From Anaerotignum propionicum DSM 1682 (GTDB taxonomy: Bacteria; Bacillota; Clostridia; Lachnospirales; Anaerotignaceae), in assembly GCF_001561955.1 (NCBI RefSeq), contig NZ_CP014223.1:682001-746000 (forward strand): a stretch of DNA of 64,000 nucleotides. The letters are read 5' to 3'. Both the position numbers and the translations under genes were made by a program. The notes below the pieces were generated by a model that did no database searches, was not told where the DNA came from, and saw nothing but the letters and a program-made list of their open reading frames with translations. Positions 4,560-52,577 of the stretch are shown piece by piece. How positions within the stretch are numbered: the stretch's first letter is position 1; every line of letters starts with the position of its first letter.

Positions 4560-4812
4560 AGGAGACAGTATATATTTTCAATATGATTACAGAGAGTCGG
4601 GGCTTGGTGGGATCCCTTCGTCATAGAAAATATAGAAAATCACTCCGGAGTGGCAGTCCAAACGGTTTTTTTACCCAGTAGGCGCTGTCGTTTGCCCGCG
4701 TTAAGGGTCGGCGTCATTAAATTGTGATGCTTAGAGTGGATGGCAAAATTGCTGTCAAATCAGGTGGTACCGCGAACCCTTTCGTCCTGTGTTGGATGAA
4801 AGGGTCTTTTTT
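4560..4812 (+). ncRNA. T-box leader, isoleucine-specific by context
   Basis: A tRNA-sensing leader before ileS. The hallmark T-box AGGTGGTACCGCG is at 4762-4774. It is directly followed by a 12-base-pair terminator stem (4776-4787 with 4794-4805, one G-U pair) and a T-run. A Stem I-like stretch begins with AGAGAGTCGGGG near 4590. The likely specifier is ATC at 4639-4641, in the GAAAATCAC context usual for the specifier loop; it codes Ile and agrees with the downstream gene. Uncharged tRNA-Ile should stabilise the antiterminator and let transcription reach ileS. The specifier position is inferred by eye. Confidence 0.9.
4776..4812 (+). terminator. Regulated terminator of the ileS T-box
   Basis: ACCCTTTCGTCC pairs with GGATGAAAGGGT and is followed by CTTTTTT. 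The 5' arm overlaps the antiterminator bulge region, as T-boxes require. Confidence 0.88.
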
Positions 4813-37713: not shown

Positions 37714-37754
37714 AAAAAGAGTCTGAAGTAAATTTACTTCAGACTCTTTTTTTG
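37714..37754. terminator. Bidirectional terminator, 19-bp perfect palindrome
   Basis: Arms 37714-37732 and 37733-37751 are perfectly complementary, with A/T runs at both ends. It separates the LysE gene (+) from the spore protein gene (-). Confidence 0.92.
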
Positions 37755-43878: not shown

Positions 43879-46712
43879 ATGAAGGATAAAATTGTAATTC
43901 GGGGAGCGAGGGAGCACAATTTAAAAAATGTGGACCTTACTATCCCAAGAGATAAACTTGTTGTTTTCACTGGGGTCAGCGGTTCGGGAAAAAGCTCCTT
44001 GGCCTTTGATACCCTTTATGCAGAAGGGCAGAGACGGTATGTTGAGTCTCTGTCCTCTTATGCACGGCAATTTTTAGGGCAGATGGAAAAACCTGATGTT
44101 GATTTGATTGAAGGGCTTTCTCCTGCCATTTCAATAGACCAAAAGACCACGAGTCATAACCCCCGTTCTACTGTGGGGACCGTAACTGAGATTTATGATT
44201 ATTTGCGTTTGCTTTATGCAAGAATTGGTATACCTCATTGCCCGAAGTGTGGAAAAGAGGTTAAAAAGCAGACCATTGACCAGATCGTAGACCGTATTTT
44301 AGAATTGCCGGAACGGTCGAAGCTACAGCTTCTTGCCCCTGTTGTGCGTGGACGCAAGGGGGAGCACGTAAAGCTTTTAGAGGATGCTAAAAAAAGTGGA
44401 TATGTGCGTGTGCGTGTGGATGGCAACCTATATGACCTTTCGGAAAAACTTGAGCTTGAGAAAAATAAAAAACATACCATAGAAATTGTGGTTGACCGTT
44501 TAGTGGTAAAAGAAGGTATACAGAAGCGTTTGACAGAATCCATTGAGACAGTAACCAGTTTGACAGGGGGACTTTTGGTCGTGGACGTAAATCAAGGAGA
44601 AGAGGAATTGGTGTTTAGCCAAAACTTTTCATGCCCTGACTGCGGCATAGATTTAATGGAGATTGAACCACGATTATTTTCCTTTAATAATCCCAGTGGT
44701 GCATGCCCCACTTGTACCGGCTTAGGCATGCAAATGAAATTTGATGAAAACCTGATTGTGCCCAATGACAGCCTTAGTATCTTAAAAGGAGCCATTGTTG
44801 CCCCAGGATATAATTCTATTTCTGCAAAGGACAGCATGAGTCGTGTTTTGTTTGAAGCTTTGGCAGAGCGTTATAACTTCTCTCTGGAAACACCCTTTAA
44901 AGACCTTCCAGAAAAGATTAAAAAAATAATTTTTATGGTACTGGCGGTGAAAAGCTTCGCATTACCTATACAAACTATCGGGGAACAGGTACTTATGATT
45001 ACGAATACGACGGTCTGATTAACAATTTACAGCGCAGATATAACGAGACCTCAGAGGGGATGCGGGGAGAATATGAGGAATATATGACCAATATTCAGTG
45101 CCCAGATTGCCATGGGCAACGTTTGCGTCCCGAGGTTCTTGCCATCACTGTAGGGGGAAAGAATATTTCTCAATTGACAAAGCTTTCTGTAGCAGAGATA
45201 CAAACGTTTTTCAGAGAGCTTGTTTTAAGTGGACGAGAAGAAATGATCGGCCAGCGTATTTTAAAGGAAGTCAATGCCAGAATTGGATTTTTGATGGACG
45301 TAGGTCTGGAGTATCTTACCCTTTCCCGGGCGGCAGGTACCCTCTCCGGCGGTGAAGCACAGAGGATTCGTCTTGCTACCCAAATTGGTTCGGGCTTGGT
45401 TGGTGTTGTATATATTTTGGACGAGCCAAGCATTGGATTACATCAAAGGGACAACGATAAACTCTTAAAATCTCTACAACACCTTCGGGATATTGGAAAT
45501 TCTTTAATTGTTGTTGAGCATGATGAGGATACTATGTATGCGGCAGATTGCATTGTGGACATTGGCCCCGGTGCCGGTAAAGATGGCGGAGAGGTAATTT
45601 GTGTAGGCAGTGTTGAAGAAATTAAGGCGTGTGAGCGTTCGGTTACGGGGGACTATCTCAGCGGCAGGAGAAGAATCGAAGTGCCAAAAACACGAAGAAA
45701 ATTCGAATCAGAGCATGTGATTCAAATTAGAGGTGCTGGGGAAAACAATTTGAAAAATATTGATGTTGACATTCCATTGGGCATATTCACCTGTGTAACA
45801 GGAGTCAGCGGTTCAGGGAAAAGCTCATTGGTCAATGAAATATTATATAAGCGTTTGGCGAGAGATTTAAACCGCGCTAAGCTTCGTCCCGGTGTCCATG
45901 AAGAAATGATTGGTCATGAGGTGCTGGATAAAGTAATAGACATTGACCAATCACCCATTGGGCGTACGCCAAGAAGCAATCCTGCAACTTATACAGGCGT
46001 TTTCGATTTAATCCGTGATGTATTTACCCAAACCACTGAGGCAAAAATGAGAGGGTATCAAAAGGGTCGATTCAGTTTTAATGTGAAGGGTGGACGTTGC
46101 GAGGCGTGCGCCGGAGATGGAATTATTAAAATAGAAATGCATTTTTTACCCGATATTTATGTGCCTTGCGAGGTTTGCCAAGGAAAGCGATATAACCGTG
46201 AAACTTTAGAGGTAAAGTATAAAGGAAAAAGCATTTCCGATGTGCTGGAAATGACAGTGGAAGAAGCTTTGGCATTTTTTGAAAACATCCCTCGCATTAA
46301 ATCGAAGCTTCAGACCCTTAATGATGTTGGCTTATCCTATGTTCGGTTGGGGCAGTCTTCCACAACCCTTTCCGGTGGTGAAGCCCAAAGGGTAAAGCTT
46401 GCCACGGAGCTAAGCAAGAAAAGCACCGGGCGTACCATGTATATTTTAGATGAACCTACAACAGGCCTGCATACTGCGGATGTGCACAAATTAGTACAAA
46501 TTCTTCAACAGTTAGCCGAAGGCGGTAACACAGTTGTAGTCATTGAGCACAACCTTGATGTGATTAAAACGGCGGATTACATTATTGACTTGGGGCCAGA
46601 GGGTGGCGATAAAGGCGGAATGGTGATTGCCAAGGGTACCCCTGAGGATATATGCAAGGTTGCCAAATCTTATACAGGAAAGTATTTGAAGAGTTTTATA
46701 GAGAAGGGTTAA
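43879..46712 (+). pseudogene. uvrA: UvrABC system protein A, one frame break
   Basis: The damage-sensing ABC ATPase of excision repair. The first frame (43879-45018) has Walker [10 protein letters not shown] (residues 32-39), the Zn cysteine pair CPKCGKEV and the CPDCGIDL insertion. The second frame has CPDCHGQRL, the signature [23 protein letters not shown], a second Walker [19 protein letters not shown], and [11 protein letters not shown] with LDEPTTGLH. The frame changes near 44920-44934. Adding one base to the A7 or T5 run restores [18 protein letters not shown], the family-typical join, and a 944-residue protein. AAGGAGG precedes the ATG. It is either a sequencing error or a recent mutation. 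Confidence 0.92.
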
Positions 46713-46724
46713 AGAGCATAAATC

Positions 46725-46764
46725 GGTAGGAAAATCAGATTATTTGATTTTTCCTGCCTTTTTT
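46725..46764 (+). terminator. Terminator after uvrA
   Basis: GGTAGGAAAATCA pairs with TGATTTTTCCTGCC with one bulge, followed by TTTTTTG. Confidence 0.82.
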
Positions 46765-46809
46765 GTTATAATTCGGAAAAAAGGTTTATGTACAAAAGAA
46801 ATGTTTATA

Positions 46810-46838
46810 TTGACAAGTTGTTTAGAAATCATTACCAT
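46810..46838 (+). promoter_or_regulatory. Promoter of the 46874 gene
   Basis: TTGACA (46810-46815), 17 bases, TACCAT (46833-46838). Confidence 0.6.
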
Positions 46839-46873
46839 AAGATTATAAGATTTTTGGGTGAGTGGAGGAAGAT

Positions 46874-47179
46874 ATGGCTAAGGGAAAAGAACCGGTACAG
46901 GGTTTTGTACAGGCAAGTAAAAGAGTAACAGATTTATTTGGCTGCGAGGGCGATTTCTTTTTAAAGCCTCTTTTAGATATTGAGTGGACGGTGCGTCGAG
47001 ATGATGATTTTTACTTCCTCTGTTATTGGTTAGAAAACGGCAAAAAGGTTGAAGCGGTAATCGTGAAGAAAAACGGGGAGCCGTTGATATATAAAACGAA
47101 AGATTACTCTATGGTCGTAGCGATTGATTGTGTTAAAATTGGGTTTGTTTTTAGTAATGATAAAAACATTTCCCAATAA
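46874..47179 (+). CDS. Small hypothetical protein
   Basis: A 101-residue soluble protein, MAKGKEPVQGFVQASKRVTDLFGCEG at the start, then alternating hydrophobic and charged residues (WTVRRDDDFYFLCYWLENGKKVEAVIVKKNGEP) suggesting a small beta-rich fold. No family was recognised. GGAGG lies 5 bases before ATG 46874. It shares direction with the SSB-like gene, but a 150-base gap lies between. Confidence 0.65.
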   Translation: MAKGKEPVQGFVQASKRVTDLFGCEGDFFLKPLLDIEWTVRRDDDFYFLCYWLENGKKVEAVIVKKNGEPLIYKTKDYSMVVAIDCVKIGFVFSNDKNISQ

Positions 47180-47330
47180 TAATGGCTAGGATATCAGCGA
47201 ACGTACCTGAAGGAGGCCTTGAAGAGTTTTTTTTTATATGGACTTCTAAAGGTTTGTTTTTTTGCGTAAACTGAAATACAGAAGGAAGCAATGTCGATGC
47301 AAAAATCGGCATAGAAAAGGGGAGAAAGCG

Positions 47331-47996
47331 ATGCATATGGATGGATTGCCGGAAAACAACAGTGTTGCCATTGCCGGTAAAATCGTGGAGGAATGTGTCT
47401 TTAGCCACGAGGTTTATGGAGAGGGCTTCTATACGTTTAAGATAGCATCTGAGCGTCTTAGTGATCAGGCTGACATCCTTCCGATCACCGTCTCGGAAAG
47501 GTTGATAGATAAAGAACAGCTGAAAGCAGGCACTTGCGTAGATGTGATGGGACAACTTCGCAGCTATAATAATTATAACAGCAAAAAGAACAGGCTTGTG
47601 CTTACTATTTTTGCCAGAGAAATTCGTCTGATGTCTGAGGAAGAAAAAAAGAATGAAAATCAAATTTTTTTGAATGGTTTTATCTGTAAAGAGCCAATTT
47701 ATAGAAAGACACCTTTTGGTCGGGAAATTTCAGATATTTTGGTTGCTGTAAACCGTGCATACAATAAGTCTGACTATATTCCCTGCATTGTTTGGGGGCG
47801 TAATGCAAGATATATGGCAAATTTAAAGGTAGGAGAAAATATCAAGGTTTGGGGTAGAGTGCAAAGCAGAAGTTATCAGAAAAAAACGGGCGATTTGATT
47901 GAAGAGAGAGTTGCCTATGAAGTTTCAGTTTCAAAAATTGAGATTCCCCATACGGATGAGAAAACAAAAACAGTTGAAGATACTACCGAAGAATAG
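47331..47996 (+). CDS. ssb: SSB-like protein with two OB folds
   Basis: A 221-residue protein that appears to hold two single-strand-binding OB domains. Domain 1 spans ~1-105 (NNSVAIAGKIVEECVFSHEVYGEGFYTFKIASERLS). Domain 2 spans ~110-205 (NQIFLNGFICKEPIYRKTPFGREISDILVAVNRAYNKSDYIPCIVWGRNARYMANLKVGENIKVWGRVQSR). The second domain is the closer match to ordinary SSB. There is no acidic DDDIPF-type tail, so a specialised rather than general SSB is likely. GGGGAG lies 6 bases before ATG 47331. The stop lies 17 bases before the next gene. Confidence 0.8.
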   Translation: MHMDGLPENNSVAIAGKIVEECVFSHEVYGEGFYTFKIASERLSDQADILPITVSERLIDKEQLKAGTCVDVMGQLRSYNNYNSKKNRLVLTIFAREIRLMSEEEKKNENQIFLNGFICKEPIYRKTPFGREISDILVAVNRAYNKSDYIPCIVWGRNARYMANLKVGENIKVWGRVQSRSYQKKTGDLIEERVAYEVSVSKIEIPHTDEKTKTVEDTTEE

Positions 47997-48013
47997 CAGG
48001 AGTTGAATATTAA

Positions 48014-48499
48014 GTGAGACGTGGACAGATTTGCGTTTATTATGGCGCGGGCAAAGGAAAAACCTGTGTGGCTGTTGGCAGAGGGCTAAGAGCGATTGGG
48101 GACGATTTGCGTGTTGTGATGATACAATTTATGGATTATCATAATAGCAAGGAAATAGAGTTGCTGAAAAAGCTTGAGCCTGATTTTCGTATTTTTCGAT
48201 TTGAGAAAAATCGTGAAGAGCAGGAGTTTGATGAAACCGTTCGCAAGGAAATTAGCGGGGAAATAAAAAATGCTTTCAATTTTGCAAGAAAAATTGTAGA
48301 TACAGGGGAATGCGAGATGCTTCTGCTGGATGGCATTTTGGAGTGCATAAGAGAGGGTTTTTTGTCTGCTGAGCAATTGGACGAATTGTTGAATCGACGC
48401 CCTGATTACATGGATATTATTTTGACCGGGGACGCTTTGCCGCCAACCATAGCGGAGCGAGTAGATTGCATTTATCAGCTGAAGACTGAGAAACAGTAA
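48014..48499 (+). CDS. CobA/CobO-like P-loop adenosyltransferase, variant
   Basis: A 161-residue protein like corrinoid adenosyltransferase CobO/BtuR, which makes adenosylcobalamin from ATP. The P-loop GAGKGKT (residues 11-17) and RRPDYMDIILTGDALPPTIAERVD are conserved. Two positions differ: the usual Walker B LLLDE reads LLLDG, and TGR reads TGD. The active-site Glu loss may reduce activity or signal another job. It starts at GTG 48014 with AGGAG about 11 bases upstream and is likely co-transcribed with the SSB-like gene. Confidence 0.75.
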   Translation: MRRGQICVYYGAGKGKTCVAVGRGLRAIGDDLRVVMIQFMDYHNSKEIELLKKLEPDFRIFRFEKNREEQEFDETVRKEISGEIKNAFNFARKIVDTGECEMLLLDGILECIREGFLSAEQLDELLNRRPDYMDIILTGDALPPTIAERVDCIYQLKTEKQ

Positions 48500-48606
48500 G
48501 ACTTCCTCTAGGGCTTTATCTTTTGTATGGGTCAGGATAGACTCAATAGAAAAATCACTTTTAAAAGATGTTCTGTGTTTAAATTTAAATTTTTGGCAGT
48601 AAAATC

Positions 48607-48642
48607 ACCATCAAAATGTGTATACTTTTGGTGGTTTTTTTA
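48607..48642 (+). terminator. Terminator after the CobA-like gene
   Basis: ACCA-T-CAAAA (48607-48616) pairs with TTTTG-G-TGGT (48626-48635), then TTTTTT. Confidence 0.75.
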
Positions 48643-48885
48643 TGTTGTTTCGGATAAGAAGGAAAGAAATTCTTATATTGTGGTTTATCTGTAGCAAACT
48701 AAGAGATATAGAGTAACTGCGATTTTCTTAAGTTTATTAATCCTAACTATTATATGAGATATTTGTAATTCAAAATGATGGTGATTTTTAAACATATGTA
48801 GTGAAATCTATGAGAAACCTGTGTATAAGGTTTGACATCATGAACATTGGAGAATCAATACAGGAATATAAAATTTATTTGTGTG

Positions 48886-48944
48886 TTGACATATGAAAAT
48901 ATATATAATAATATATTAAATAGTTATATTTAGTATAACTATTT
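48886..48944 (+). promoter_or_regulatory. Strong -35 promoter overlapped by an 11-bp perfect dyad
   Basis: TTGACA (48886-48891), 17 bases, TAATAT (48909-48914). AAATAGTTATA (48918-48928) and TATAACTATTT (48934-48944) form a perfect dyad around five bases at the expected transcription start, a typical repressor-site position. Confidence 0.6.
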
Positions 48945-49481
48945 ATCGATGTGCGCATGTCTCTTGCAGTCGGAACCAGTAGGTGGTGATGTGAAAAAAA
49001 TAAATTGACGGAGAAAGAAATGGGGTTTAGTAAGAAGAAATGGATTTGATGCTGCCATTCTATGTCGAATTCTTCAATTTATAAAAAGGAAATGCAGAAG
49101 GTTAGCTGAGAGGCATAGGGATAGGACAAATGAAAGTACGGATGATATTAGAAAGCAATTTATTTTGTCCTTATCTGTTTTAATATTTTTTTGCCAAAAT
49201 TTCACATAATCTTTTAGATTGGCATTATTTTAAACAGATATAGACAGTAGATCATTATTCAAAATGATTGATATATCCTGATTTCTCTATATTGCTAAAC
49301 GATACATAACCAATGTGCTTAAATCAACTAAATTAAGAAAGTTGCTTAAAACGCGAAGAAATAACAAGTGAGATGATTCATTTGGAGTGGCAACAGTAAC
49401 TTAAGTATGATTTTATGATGCAACAACAAAAGAATGAAGATTGAGTGCCAACAGCTGCACGATATCAGGGGAAAAATAGGG

Positions 49482-49525
49482 ACAGTGCCAGTGCTTTGGG
49501 ATGATGTGACTGACACTGTTTTTAT
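49482..49525 (+). terminator. Terminator of an unassigned transcript
   Basis: ACAGTG-C-CAGT (49482-49492) pairs with ACTG-A-CACTGT (49509-49519), followed by TTTTTA. No gene lies upstream within 980 bases. Confidence 0.72.
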
Positions 49526-49646
49526 TTATAGTAATAATCAACTGAGATATTTCAATCTGTTTCTGCTATTTCAGGTATGTAATATAGAATTTGAAATATA
49601 TGGACTTTAATGTATTGATGTTTATTGAATTGGATGCATAGCCAAT

Positions 49647-49686
49647 TAAAAAAAGCCCTTTTGTTATCTTAATAGGGGCTTTTTGT
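49647..49686 (-). terminator. Terminator of the asd-dapA-dapB operon
   Basis: On the minus strand AAAAAGCCCC pairs with GGGCTTTTT around an AT-rich loop, followed by a T7 run. Confidence 0.8.
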
Positions 49687-49691
49687 TTATA

Positions 49692-50444
49692 TTAAGCTAA
49701 GACATCTTTCATAGAATAAAGTCCGGGGCATTGTGAAGCCAAAAATTTTGCGGCTTTTACGGCACCAACTGCAAAAACCTCCCGGGAGGTGGCTTTATGG
49801 GTTAATTCAATTACTTCGTCTCTGCCCGCGAAAATAACGTCGTGGTCACCCACAATATTTCCACCTCGCACAGCGTGAATTCCGATTTCTTTACGGTCTC
49901 TTTTTTCATTTGTTTGAGAACGATCATAAACATAATGGAATTGTTGCTCCATTGCCTCGTTTATTGCATCAGCCAAAGCCATGGCAGTTCCACTGGGAGC
50001 ATCAATTTTTTGGTTATGATGCTTTTCAACGATTTCAATATCGAAATTTGCGTCATACAAAGCTTTTGCAGCCTTTTGAACTAACCCTATAAGCAAGTTT
50101 ATACCGATGGACATATTTGCTGATTTTAACACGGCAACGCTTTTTGAAGTTTCCTTTAGCAATTCCATAGTTTCGTCACTGAGAGCAGTGGTGCAGGCGA
50201 CAACAGGTATTTTTTTTGCTTTTGCAAACTCCAGTAGTGCTGGTACAGCCACTGCTGTAGAAAAGTCAATGATTACGTCGGCTTCAATATTACAGTCAGC
50301 AGGCGTTGGGAAAACAGGAAAATCAGCCTCAGGCACTCTGGGGTCAATACCTGCAACAATTTGGCAGTTGGCATCATTTGCTACGATTTCTGCCACAACC
50401 TGTCCCATTTTACCACCACAGCCATGCATGATAATATTAATCAT
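49692..50444 (-). CDS. dapB: 4-hydroxy-tetrahydrodipicolinate reductase
   Basis: Third enzyme of the lysine/diaminopimelate branch, reducing hydroxytetrahydrodipicolinate with NAD(P)H. The 250-residue protein has the nucleotide-binding HGCGGKMGQVVAEIV at the N-terminus, SANMSIGINL, the catalytic EKHHNQKIDAPSGTAMAL and a C-terminal GRDEVIELTHKATSREVFA. ATG 50444 has AAGGAG 8 bases upstream; an upstream GTG gives three more residues. It is last in the operon. The 200-base gap to dapA contains a hairpin that may reduce its transcription. Confidence 0.96.
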   Translation of the reverse strand: MINIIMHGCGGKMGQVVAEIVANDANCQIVAGIDPRVPEADFPVFPTPADCNIEADVIIDFSTAVAVPALLEFAKAKKIPVVACTTALSDETMELLKETSKSVAVLKSANMSIGINLLIGLVQKAAKALYDANFDIEIVEKHHNQKIDAPSGTAMALADAINEAMEQQFHYVYDRSQTNEKRDRKEIGIHAVRGGNIVGDHDVIFAGRDEVIELTHKATSREVFAVGAVKAAKFLASQCPGLYSMKDVLA

Positions 50445-50618
50445 ATAGTACACTCCTTTAAAATCAAACCTTATCCTGCTTTTTGAATGATATCCTTTTA
50501 TTAAGGAAATGAATCATTCTAAAGCTTGTCTTTTTCACTGACTAATGTCAGCGTCCATTGTAATATAACAATTTCCAAACCTACGTCTTGTCAGCATCTT
50601 ATGCACAAGGAAATCTGT

Positions 50619-50649
50619 TAAAATGCGGCAAAGAGATATCTTTGCCGCA
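50619..50649 (-). terminator. Attenuator-like hairpin between dapA and dapB
   Basis: TGCGGCAAAGA (50624-50634) and TCTTTGCCGCA (50639-50649) form a perfect 11-base stem, followed on the minus strand by TTTT. Confidence 0.7.
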
Positions 50650-50656
50650 AACGTCA

Positions 50657-51541
50657 TTATGAAATCAAACCGTAGTTTTTCATTGCTTTTTTTAATGTTT
50701 CCAGATTTTTGTCTTCCATAGCACAAAGAGGCATACGGCAAGGGCCTACCTCGTAACCCATTAAATCCAATGCTGTTTTTACAGGAATAGGATTTACCTC
50801 ACAGAACAGGGCAGAAATCAGCTCGATTGCACCCAATTGCAATGCGATGGAACCCTTTAGATCACCCTCGAAGAATTTAACAACCATATCATGGGTTTCT
50901 TTTGGAGCAATGTTAGACAAAACAGAAATGACACCTTTACCGCCTAAAGAGAGGATAGGGAGGATTTGATCATCATTACCGCTGTAAATATCAAAGTCAG
51001 GACCAACAAGAGCTGCAATTTCAGCTACTTGAGACAGGTTGCCGCTTGCTTCTTTTACTGCCACAATATTTTTTACCTTGGACAGTTCTAACACTGTTTT
51101 AGGAGTGATATTGCAACCTGTACGCCCGGGAACATTATACAGAATGATGGGGATAGATAAACTTTCCGCAACAGCAGTATAATGGAGAATCAGACCTTTC
51201 TGGGTAGCCTTATTGTAATAAGGGGTTACCAATAAAACCGCATCAGCCCCTGCAGTTTCGCAACCTTTTGCCAATTCGATGCAGTGTGCTGTGTCGTTAC
51301 TGCCTGCACCTGCAATAACAGGGACTCTGCCTTTTACAACCTCAACTGCGTAGCGTACGCATTCAATTTGTACTTCATCGGAAAGAGTGGATGCTTCACC
51401 TGTTGTTCCGCAAATAATCAAGGCATCGGTGTCGTTGGCAAGCTGGAACTCAATTAATTCTTTCATTTTTTCGAAATTAACAGTACCGTCGGGAAATGTA
51501 GGCGTAACCAAAGCAACACCTGCGCCTGTAAAAATTGACAT
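50657..51541 (-). CDS. dapA: 4-hydroxy-tetrahydrodipicolinate synthase
   Basis: Condenses pyruvate and aspartate semialdehyde, committing carbon to lysine and cell-wall diaminopimelate. The 294-residue TIM-barrel shows the Schiff-base lysine K163 in AVKEASGN, Y135 in LYNVPGRTG, and CGTTGEASTL near the N-terminus. GGAGG lies 10 bases before the ATG. It is co-transcribed with asd upstream and is controlled by the lysine riboswitch. Confidence 0.97.
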   Translation of the reverse strand: MSIFTGAGVALVTPTFPDGTVNFEKMKELIEFQLANDTDALIICGTTGEASTLSDEVQIECVRYAVEVVKGRVPVIAGAGSNDTAHCIELAKGCETAGADAVLLVTPYYNKATQKGLILHYTAVAESLSIPIILYNVPGRTGCNITPKTVLELSKVKNIVAVKEASGNLSQVAEIAALVGPDFDIYSGNDDQILPILSLGGKGVISVLSNIAPKETHDMVVKFFEGDLKGSIALQLGAIELISALFCEVNPIPVKTALDLMGYEVGPCRMPLCAMEDKNLETLKKAMKNYGLIS

Positions 51542-51578
51542 AATGCAAGCACCTCCAAAATTTTAAATAGGATATTAG

Positions 51579-52577
51579 TTAAGCGTTCATGTTTTTAATA
51601 ATTTCCTCTGCAATTTGAACTGCATTTGTAGCCGCACCCTTGCGGATATTATCTGCAACCACCCAGAGGTTTACTCCGTTTTCTACACTGTCGTCACGAC
51701 GAACACGACCGATAAAAACTTCATCATGTCCCGTTGCACTTTGTGCTAAAGGATATTCATTATTCATAGAATCATTCATCATAACGATGCCGGGAGCATT
51801 TTTTAATGTTTCAATCAGTTCAGCTAAATCGAAAGGATTTTCCAATTCTACATTTATAGATTCGCTGTGTGAATTGAAAACTGGTACACGTACTGTTGTA
51901 GCTGTTACTTTCAGGTTGTCATTATGAAGCATTTTTCTGGTTTCGTTTACCATTTTCATTTCTTCTTTTGTATATCCATTATCTAAGAATACATCAATAT
52001 GGGGTAAGCAGTTGTTTGCAATAGGATGGGGGAATTTCTGTGGTGCTTCTCCCTTTATGCCATTTTCAAGATCCATCCAACCTGCAAGCCCTGCACCGCT
52101 AACTGCCTGATAGGTTGAGTATACAACACGCTTAATTTTATATTTTTCATCTAAGGGCTTTAATGCAACCACTGCTTGAATGGTAGAACAGTTTGGATTT
52201 GCAATTATATTTTTGTGCCAAGAGATATCCTCAGCATTCACCTCAGGTACAATAAGAGGAACTTCCGGATCCATTCGCCACTGAGAGCTGTTATCAATTA
52301 CAATACAACCATGAGCCGCAGCAATGGGTGCAAATTTTTCGCTGGTACTGCCACCTGCGGAAAACAGCGCAATGTCAATGGGTTTATCAAAGGAATTTTC
52401 CGTTAACTCCTCAACAATATAATCTTTTCCATTGAAAGTTATTGTTTTTCCTGCGGAACGGCTGGAGGCCATAACATAGAAATTTTCAATGGGAAGCTGT
52501 CTTTCCTCCAAAACTTTTAAAAATGTTCGACCGACCATTCCTGTCGCGCCAACAACTGCTAGATTAATTTTTTTCAT
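51579..52577 (-). CDS. asd: Aspartate-semialdehyde dehydrogenase
   Basis: Reduces aspartyl phosphate to aspartate semialdehyde, the branch point for lysine, threonine and methionine. The 332-residue chain has VGATGMVGRTFLKVLEER for NADP binding, NSSQWRMDPEVPLIVPEVN, the catalytic C130 in ANPNCSTIQ, and SGAGLAGWMDLENG. GGAAG precedes the ATG. It is first in the operon and lies about 290 bases after the riboswitch terminator, so the leader is long. Confidence 0.96.
   Translation of the reverse strand: MKKINLAVVGATGMVGRTFLKVLEERQLPIENFYVMASSRSAGKTITFNGKDYIVEELTENSFDKPIDIALFSAGGSTSEKFAPIAAAHGCIVIDNSSQWRMDPEVPLIVPEVNAEDISWHKNIIANPNCSTIQAVVALKPLDEKYKIKRVVYSTYQAVSGAGLAGWMDLENGIKGEAPQKFPHPIANNCLPHIDVFLDNGYTKEEMKMVNETRKMLHNDNLKVTATTVRVPVFNSHSESINVELENPFDLAELIETLKNAPGIVMMNDSMNNEYPLAQSATGHDEVFIGRVRRDDSVENGVNLWVVADNIRKGAATNAVQIAEEIIKNMNA

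What the first reader, a model, noticed from the sequence alone, without database searches (positions are those of the whole stretch)
48886..49525. Orphan promoter-operator and terminator with no intact gene between
A TTGACA promoter, an 11-bp perfect dyad at the start site, a ribosome-site-like AGGTGG with GTG and a stop after five codons, and a strong terminator 600 bases on. Either a recently lost regulated gene or a regulated non-coding RNA.
Basis: seen in the sequence. Interest (0 to 1): 0.6.

Follow-up and report, generated by a model that had tools for sequence, protein, structure and literature searches.

The report
Leftover of a lost gene
Between two ordinary metabolic genes of an anaerobic bacterium lies the wreck of a small membrane-protein gene, apparently with its old start and stop signals still around it; it is an ordinary case of gene decay in a stretch where related species carry different genes or none.

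Summary
The signals are real, with corrections: a TTGACA-17-TAATAT promoter (48886-48914), a perfect dyad of 12 bp rather than 11 (48917-48945), AGGTGG with GTG and a stop after five codons, and a terminator-like hairpin (49474-49527). Promoter and dyad within 50 bases occurred in 0 of 2000 shuffles. But the space between holds a gene remnant: 49225-49368 matches the 3' half of a 111-aa membrane-protein gene of Anaerotignum neopropionicum (DNA 77% over about 80 bases, protein 42-45%), here with stops. A frame-tolerant alignment scored 106 against at most 58 in 300 shuffles; only the C-terminal half is demonstrable. Its intact relatives follow a gene for a secreted protein, which was not found in this genome. 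The btuR-dapB gap is a variable spot: 232-395 bp in three genus-mates, 2.4 kb with a homocysteine methyltransferase in one, 3.4 kb with an ArdA-like fragment in another. The dyad core has no second copy in this genome or 39 relatives, so no regulon is seen. Best reading: a decayed accessory gene with leftover expression signals. 'Lost gene' is supported; 'recent' and 'regulated' are not shown; a non-coding RNA is not excluded. Ordinary, low interest.

The parts
48014..48499 (+). Upstream flank: btuR/cobO-type corrinoid adenosyltransferase, 161 aa, intact
   Evidence: ORF; Pfam PF02572 E 5.2e-31; found in 8 of 8 genus genomes, own included
48600..48642 (+). Terminator hairpin behind btuR
   Evidence: fold -12.9 kcal/mol, z -3.6; a similar hairpin seen by eye in the spacer of G002
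48886..48914 (+). Promoter-like TTGACA-17-TAATAT
   Evidence: such a promoter alone arises in 301 of 2000 shuffles
48917..48945 (.). Perfect 12-bp dyad, 5-base spacer, over the expected start site
   Evidence: 11 of 2000 shuffles; no other copy of its core (up to 1 mismatch) in own genome or 39 relatives
48981..49008 (+). AGGTGG, then GTG-AAA-AAA-ATA-AAT-TGA: a five-codon reading frame
   Evidence: sequence
49225..49368 (+). Decayed 3' half of a gene like the 111-aa membrane-protein gene of Anaerotignum neopropionicum (residues 56-106), with in-frame stops
   Evidence: (DNA 77% over 49288-49366, E 1.8e-6 in that genome)
49474..49527 (+). Terminator-like hairpin, T-rich 3' arm
   Evidence: fold -19.4 kcal/mol, z -3.8; not listed by the strict scan
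49650..49690 (.). Hairpin at the 3' end of dapB, possibly a two-way terminator
   Evidence: fold of both strands, z -2.1 (+) and -1.1 (-); not listed by the strict scan
49692..50453 (-). Downstream flank: dapB, dihydrodipicolinate reductase, 253 aa, intact
   Evidence: ORF; Pfam DapB_N and DapB_C; found in 8 of 8 genus genomes, own included

Best explanation
The roughly 1-kb stretch between the btuR and dapB terminators is accessory DNA in a spot where Anaerotignum species carry different cargo or none. Here the cargo was a gene for a small membrane protein with two hydrophobic stretches, the type that in relatives follows a gene for a secreted protein. The gene has decayed (stops shown within its last ~50 codons; frameshifts inferred from the alignment). 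The secreted partner was not found in this genome. The promoter, dyad and terminator-like hairpin are most simply the leftover expression signals of that unit (inferred). If still transcribed, the RNA would start inside the dyad's left arm, could code at best for short peptides, and would end near 49527 (inferred). Whether the dyad was an operator or a 5' hairpin is undecided.
For: DNA search of 60 genomes (own plus 59): window 49288-49366 is 77% identical to the 3' end of a 111-aa gene in G007, E 1.8e-6; that contig is A. neopropionicum DSM 3847. Protein search of 58 family genomes finds this place in the window's own genome, E 9.3e-4, 42% identity, 1 TGA and 1 TAA inside; local tblastn 45% over 47 columns. 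Frame-tolerant alignment scores 106; 0 of 300 shuffles reach it (max 58), and the locus is the best of 490 half-overlapping stretches (both strands) of the window. DNA alignment 412 versus a maximum of 316 in 1000 shuffles. Over the 16 best-aligned codons 9 are identical, 4 synonymous, 3 non-synonymous; 6 of 10 mismatches are at third positions, as expected of coding descent. btuR-dapB spacers: 232, 256 and 395 bp (too short for more than a small gene), 2406 bp with a homocysteine S-methyltransferase, 3362 bp with an ArdA-like fragment and a 549-aa ORF, 1192 bp here.
Against: The N-terminal half is not recognisable: alone it scores 27, reached by 144 of 200 shuffles, and its DNA score is reached by 382 of 1000. 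So the link between promoter/dyad and remnant, some 280 bases apart, rests on position and strand only. A four-row profile of the family finds no match in the window's own genome at E 0.01; the homology rests on the one closest relative. No trace of the secreted partner in the locus. Another place in the window scores 79 (44721, minus strand), others 64 and 61, and the reverse strand of the locus itself scores 64 against a shuffle maximum of 63 of 100, so the natural background is heavier than shuffles suggest. The same protein query also gives a second place in the own genome at E 0.0013, close to the E-value of the remnant; I read that one as chance.
Confidence: 0.7

Rival explanations
1. 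A regulated non-coding RNA of about 600 bases is made from the promoter, controlled at the dyad, ending at the hairpin.
For: Promoter plus dyad in register (0 of 2000 shuffles) and a stable 3' hairpin are kept although no gene is intact.
Against: No Rfam family at gathering score; no convincing relative of the stretch outside the remnant in 59 relatives: besides the own locus and G007, one search lists 26 matches, 17 over the AT-rich promoter and dyad (one of them the dyad matching itself) and 9 scattered, all with E of 1.1e-4 or worse; the dyad core is unique; part of the supposed RNA is a decayed reading frame.
Confidence: 0.13
2. Promoter and dyad have nothing to do with the remnant: they are separate relics, or serve a short leader peptide, and the gene fragment arrived or decayed independently.
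For: The 49009-49203 reading frame has no Pfam or NCBIfam match; the N-terminal half of the 111-aa protein does not align above chance; AT-rich DNA gives such promoters often (301 of 2000).
Against: Order and strand (promoter, dyad, remnant, hairpin) fit one unit; intact family members are only 18-24% identical to the 111-aa protein over their length, so failure of one half to align is weak evidence.
Confidence: 0.15

Closest known systems
111-aa membrane-protein gene of Anaerotignum neopropionicum DSM 3847 (L022:3318-3653, minus strand), second gene after a 289-aa secreted-type protein
   Same: 77% DNA identity over about 80 bases, 42-45% protein identity over the last ~50 residues
   Different: Open reading frame there, beside an AgrD-like peptide gene and a partner gene; here alone, broken, and between btuR and dapB
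Small membrane-protein genes behind secreted-protein genes in G001, G016 and G030 (122, 112 and 95 aa)
   Same: Same two-gene order; 18-24% identity to the 111-aa protein. They were grouped by that order and then aligned; the profile was built from them, so its finding them is no test
   Different: No significant similarity to the window remnant (122-aa protein: score 32, reached by 54 of 100 shuffles; profile finds nothing in the own genome)
Pseudogenes in variable intergenic spots of bacterial genomes (general knowledge)
   Same: Conserved flanks, cargo differing between species, broken reading frame, leftover signals
   Different: Nothing unusual apart from the well-kept promoter-dyad

Membership tests
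Pseudogene of the 111-aa membrane-protein gene | Sequence homology above chance to an intact gene | tested here: met
   C-terminal half only
Pseudogene of the 111-aa membrane-protein gene | Reading frame broken | tested here: met
   1 TGA and 1 TAA within the match; no + strand ORF of 50 aa or more overlaps 49225-49368
Pseudogene of the 111-aa membrane-protein gene | Homology reaches the start of the gene | tested here: not met
   N-terminal half at chance level
Two-gene secreted protein / membrane protein cassette | Secreted-protein gene upstream | tested here: not met
   289-aa and 320-aa proteins at 48500-49080: scores 37 and 33, reached by 27 and 51 of 60 shuffles; no match in own genome at E 0.01 or, by profile, 0.001
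Operator of a known regulon | Further copies of the site in the genome or in relatives | tested here: not met
   no further copy with up to 1 mismatch in own genome and 39 relatives; the backward control pattern hit 2 of the 40 genomes
Known structured RNA | Match to an Rfam family at gathering score | tested here: not met
   8 matches up to E 10 in 46000-52000, each below its gathering score
Transcribed non-coding RNA | A transcript from this promoter | not testable with these tools
   no RNA data at hand

The most novel reading that the evidence does not exclude
The remnant is an orphaned partner gene of an uncharacterised two-gene system of Anaerotignum and relatives (secreted protein plus small membrane protein, perhaps toxin and immunity or signal and receptor), in which the membrane partner outlives the secreted one. 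Beside rpsL-type genes in A. neopropionicum a membrane-protein gene 70% identical to that of G001 has upstream only three short ORFs (100-105 aa); the two compared, the two farthest upstream, have no significant similarity to the secreted proteins, where G001 has the 320-aa secreted-protein gene.
Probability: 0.2. Interest if true: 0.4.

Novelty: new member of a known kind. Interest (0 to 1): 0.2.

Why it matters
It explains the apparent orphan signals as most likely belonging to a decayed gene, and marks the btuR-dapB gap as a variable spot in Anaerotignum. It also points to a small gene pair (secreted protein plus membrane protein) of which the four proteins scanned (111, 289, 320, 122 aa) reached no curated cut-off in Pfam or NCBIfam and nothing better than E 0.008 in PHROGs; it may deserve study where it is intact.

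Tried and rejected
Non-coding RNA family: Rfam gave only matches below gathering score. Regulon: the dyad pattern search gave no second copy. Secreted partner inside the locus: 289-aa and 320-aa proteins at chance level. A second place in the own genome, C1:1604795-1604980 (E 0.0013), overlaps a long intact ORF on the same strand in another frame or its surroundings (L032; genes there look like rseP, dxr and ispG, names recalled); taken as chance. I first read the frame-tolerant alignment as covering the whole 111-aa protein from its first residue; the split test showed the N-terminal half not above chance, so that claim was dropped. Phages and plasmids: no match to the 111-aa protein. Other DNA matches in G050, G051 and G034: short, AT-rich or inside a long unrelated ORF; taken as chance; the rest were not followed one by one. 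Fold of the 289-aa partner without alignment: mean pLDDT 34, useless; no fold search was made. Pfam and NCBIfam scans of four short reading frames of the locus: one weak Pfam match, GST_N_2, E 0.11, below cut-off, taken as chance. Papers: for A. propionicum plus transcriptome only the search listing of 8 papers was read, so RNA data may exist there unseen; of PMC5903667 one passage was read, which mentions an inversion signature near a chemotaxis gene in A. propionicum and was not tied to this locus.

Full report
Setting. The window is 682001-746000 of a single 3,120,417-base contig. A genus-mate, G007, carries the 111-aa gene discussed below on a 99,893-base contig that a scan of named genomes identifies as Anaerotignum neopropionicum DSM 3847. 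The window's own species may be A. propionicum, whose published genome is one circular chromosome of 3.1 Mb (PMC4832176, whole text read); that is inference from genus and size only. The locus lies between btuR (48014-48499, +) and dapB (49692-50453, -), each found in 8 of 8 genus genomes, own included.

Observation. In 2000 dinucleotide shuffles of 48500-49690 a perfect dyad of at least 12 bp with a spacer of 0-10 arose in 11, a TTGACA promoter with 10 or more of 12 matches in 301, and both within 50 bases in none. The region has 30% G+C against 39% for the window.

A gene remnant. A DNA search of 60 genomes (own plus 59 relatives) gave matches at E up to 0.01 in 19, own included. Of its 28 listed matches one is the locus itself; one joins window 49288-49366 to the 3' end of a 111-aa gene in G007 at 77% identity, E 1.8e-6; 17 lie over the AT-rich promoter and dyad, one of them the dyad of the own genome matching its other strand; and 9 are scattered, all these 26 with E of 1.1e-4 or worse. 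Three of the scattered ones were looked at and read as chance.

Searching 58 family genomes with the 111-aa protein gives four genomes with E up to 0.01: G007 itself; the window's own genome at this very place (E 9.3e-4, residues 56-106, 42%, 1 TGA and 1 TAA inside) and at a second place (E 0.0013) that I take as chance; and weak matches in G012 and G034. In 392 genomes of the order at E up to 0.001 only G007 and the window's place remain. A profile of four members finds no match in the own genome at E 0.01, so the homology rests on the closest relative.

A frame-tolerant alignment scores 106 against a shuffle mean of 33.8, sd 5.9, maximum 58 of 300. Split tests put the signal in the C-terminal half (86 against a maximum of 46 of 200); the N-terminal half scores 27, reached by 144 of 200. 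Among 490 half-overlapping stretches of both strands of the window the locus is top (106 and, in the overlapping stretch, 105), the next unrelated place scoring 79. The reverse strand of the locus scored 64, shuffle maximum 63 of 100, a reminder that a hydrophobic query on AT-rich DNA has a heavy background. At DNA level the whole gene scores 412 against a maximum of 316 in 1000 shuffles, the first half alone 136, reached by 382 of 1000. Over 16 codons (49303-49350) 9 are identical, 4 synonymous and 3 non-synonymous, and 6 of 10 mismatches fall on third positions. I read this as descent from a coding gene that later broke.

What the gene was. In G007 the 111-aa gene follows a 289-aa protein gene that lies behind an AgrD-like peptide gene (TIGR04223 at 17.7 bits, just under its cut-off of 19). 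In G001 a 320-aa relative of the 289-aa protein (27% identity) with a signal-peptide-like start (by eye) is followed by a 122-aa membrane-type protein, and shorter relatives in G016 and G030 by 112-aa and 95-aa proteins. Of the other matches, the 261-aa relative at G007:C1 is not followed by such a gene, and in G002 the locus as held ends inside the gene. By hydropathy three of five such membrane proteins have two 19-residue stretches above 1.4, one has three and the 95-aa form one. The four proteins scanned (111, 289, 320, 122 aa) reached no curated cut-off in Pfam or NCBIfam, and in PHROGs nothing better than E 0.008. Function is unknown; a secreted protein with a small membrane partner recalls toxin and immunity pairs, but that is recall, not a test.

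The spot. Between btuR and dapB, G002, G005 and G004 have 232, 256 and 395 bp; G003 has 2406 bp with a homocysteine S-methyltransferase (NCBIfam PRK09485); G007 has 3362 bp with a 112-aa ORF holding the end of an ArdA domain (Pfam E 5.2e-9) and a 549-aa ORF; the window has 1192 bp. In G001 the two genes lie on different contigs, and in G006 they are about 0.23 Mb apart, so these two of the eight genomes were not counted. The spot thus takes accessory genes.

Regulation. The dyad core (18 fixed bases, up to 1 mismatch) has no second copy in the window's genome or in 39 relatives; the backward control pattern hit 2 of those 40 genomes. Of five upstream regions of related secreted-protein genes, two held perfect dyads of 9 bp or more, and those were unlike this one. 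So a regulon is not supported. The dyad could be an operator of a lost local regulator or a 5' hairpin; the data do not decide.

Verdict. An accessory gene decayed in place, leaving recognisable expression signals. The idea of a lost gene is supported, its recency and its regulation are not, and a non-coding RNA is possible but without positive evidence.

Noticed in passing
L069:1438-3122 (G007:C6): Beside rpsL/rpsG-type genes (names recalled), a 143-aa relative (70% identity) of the 122-aa membrane protein is open, while upstream there are only three short ORFs (105, 100 and 105 aa); the two farther ones, one with a signal-peptide-like start, have no significant similarity to the 289-aa or 320-aa proteins.
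   Followed up: partly
L022:3671-4600, minus strand: The 289-aa secreted-type protein of A. neopropionicum has a stop codon directly upstream in the same frame, within what looks like its signal peptide, so this copy may itself be broken or start late.
   Followed up: no
L022:3056-3127 and 4656-4799, minus strand: An AgrD-like peptide gene and, about 1.6 kb further on, a near-identical copy (by eye) of its 3' end, on either side of the two-gene cassette.
   Followed up: no
48601-48613 and 48776-48788: A perfect 13-bp inverted repeat, 162 bases apart; one arm is also part of the btuR terminator, so the other may be a relic of a duplicated terminator arm.
   Followed up: no
37714-37751: A perfect 19-bp inverted repeat without spacer, the longest fully complementary one among the 25 shown for nearby arms in the window.
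   Followed up: no
L054:1447-1785: End of an ArdA-type antirestriction domain in the btuR-dapB spot of A. neopropionicum, suggesting mobile-element cargo there.
   Followed up: no
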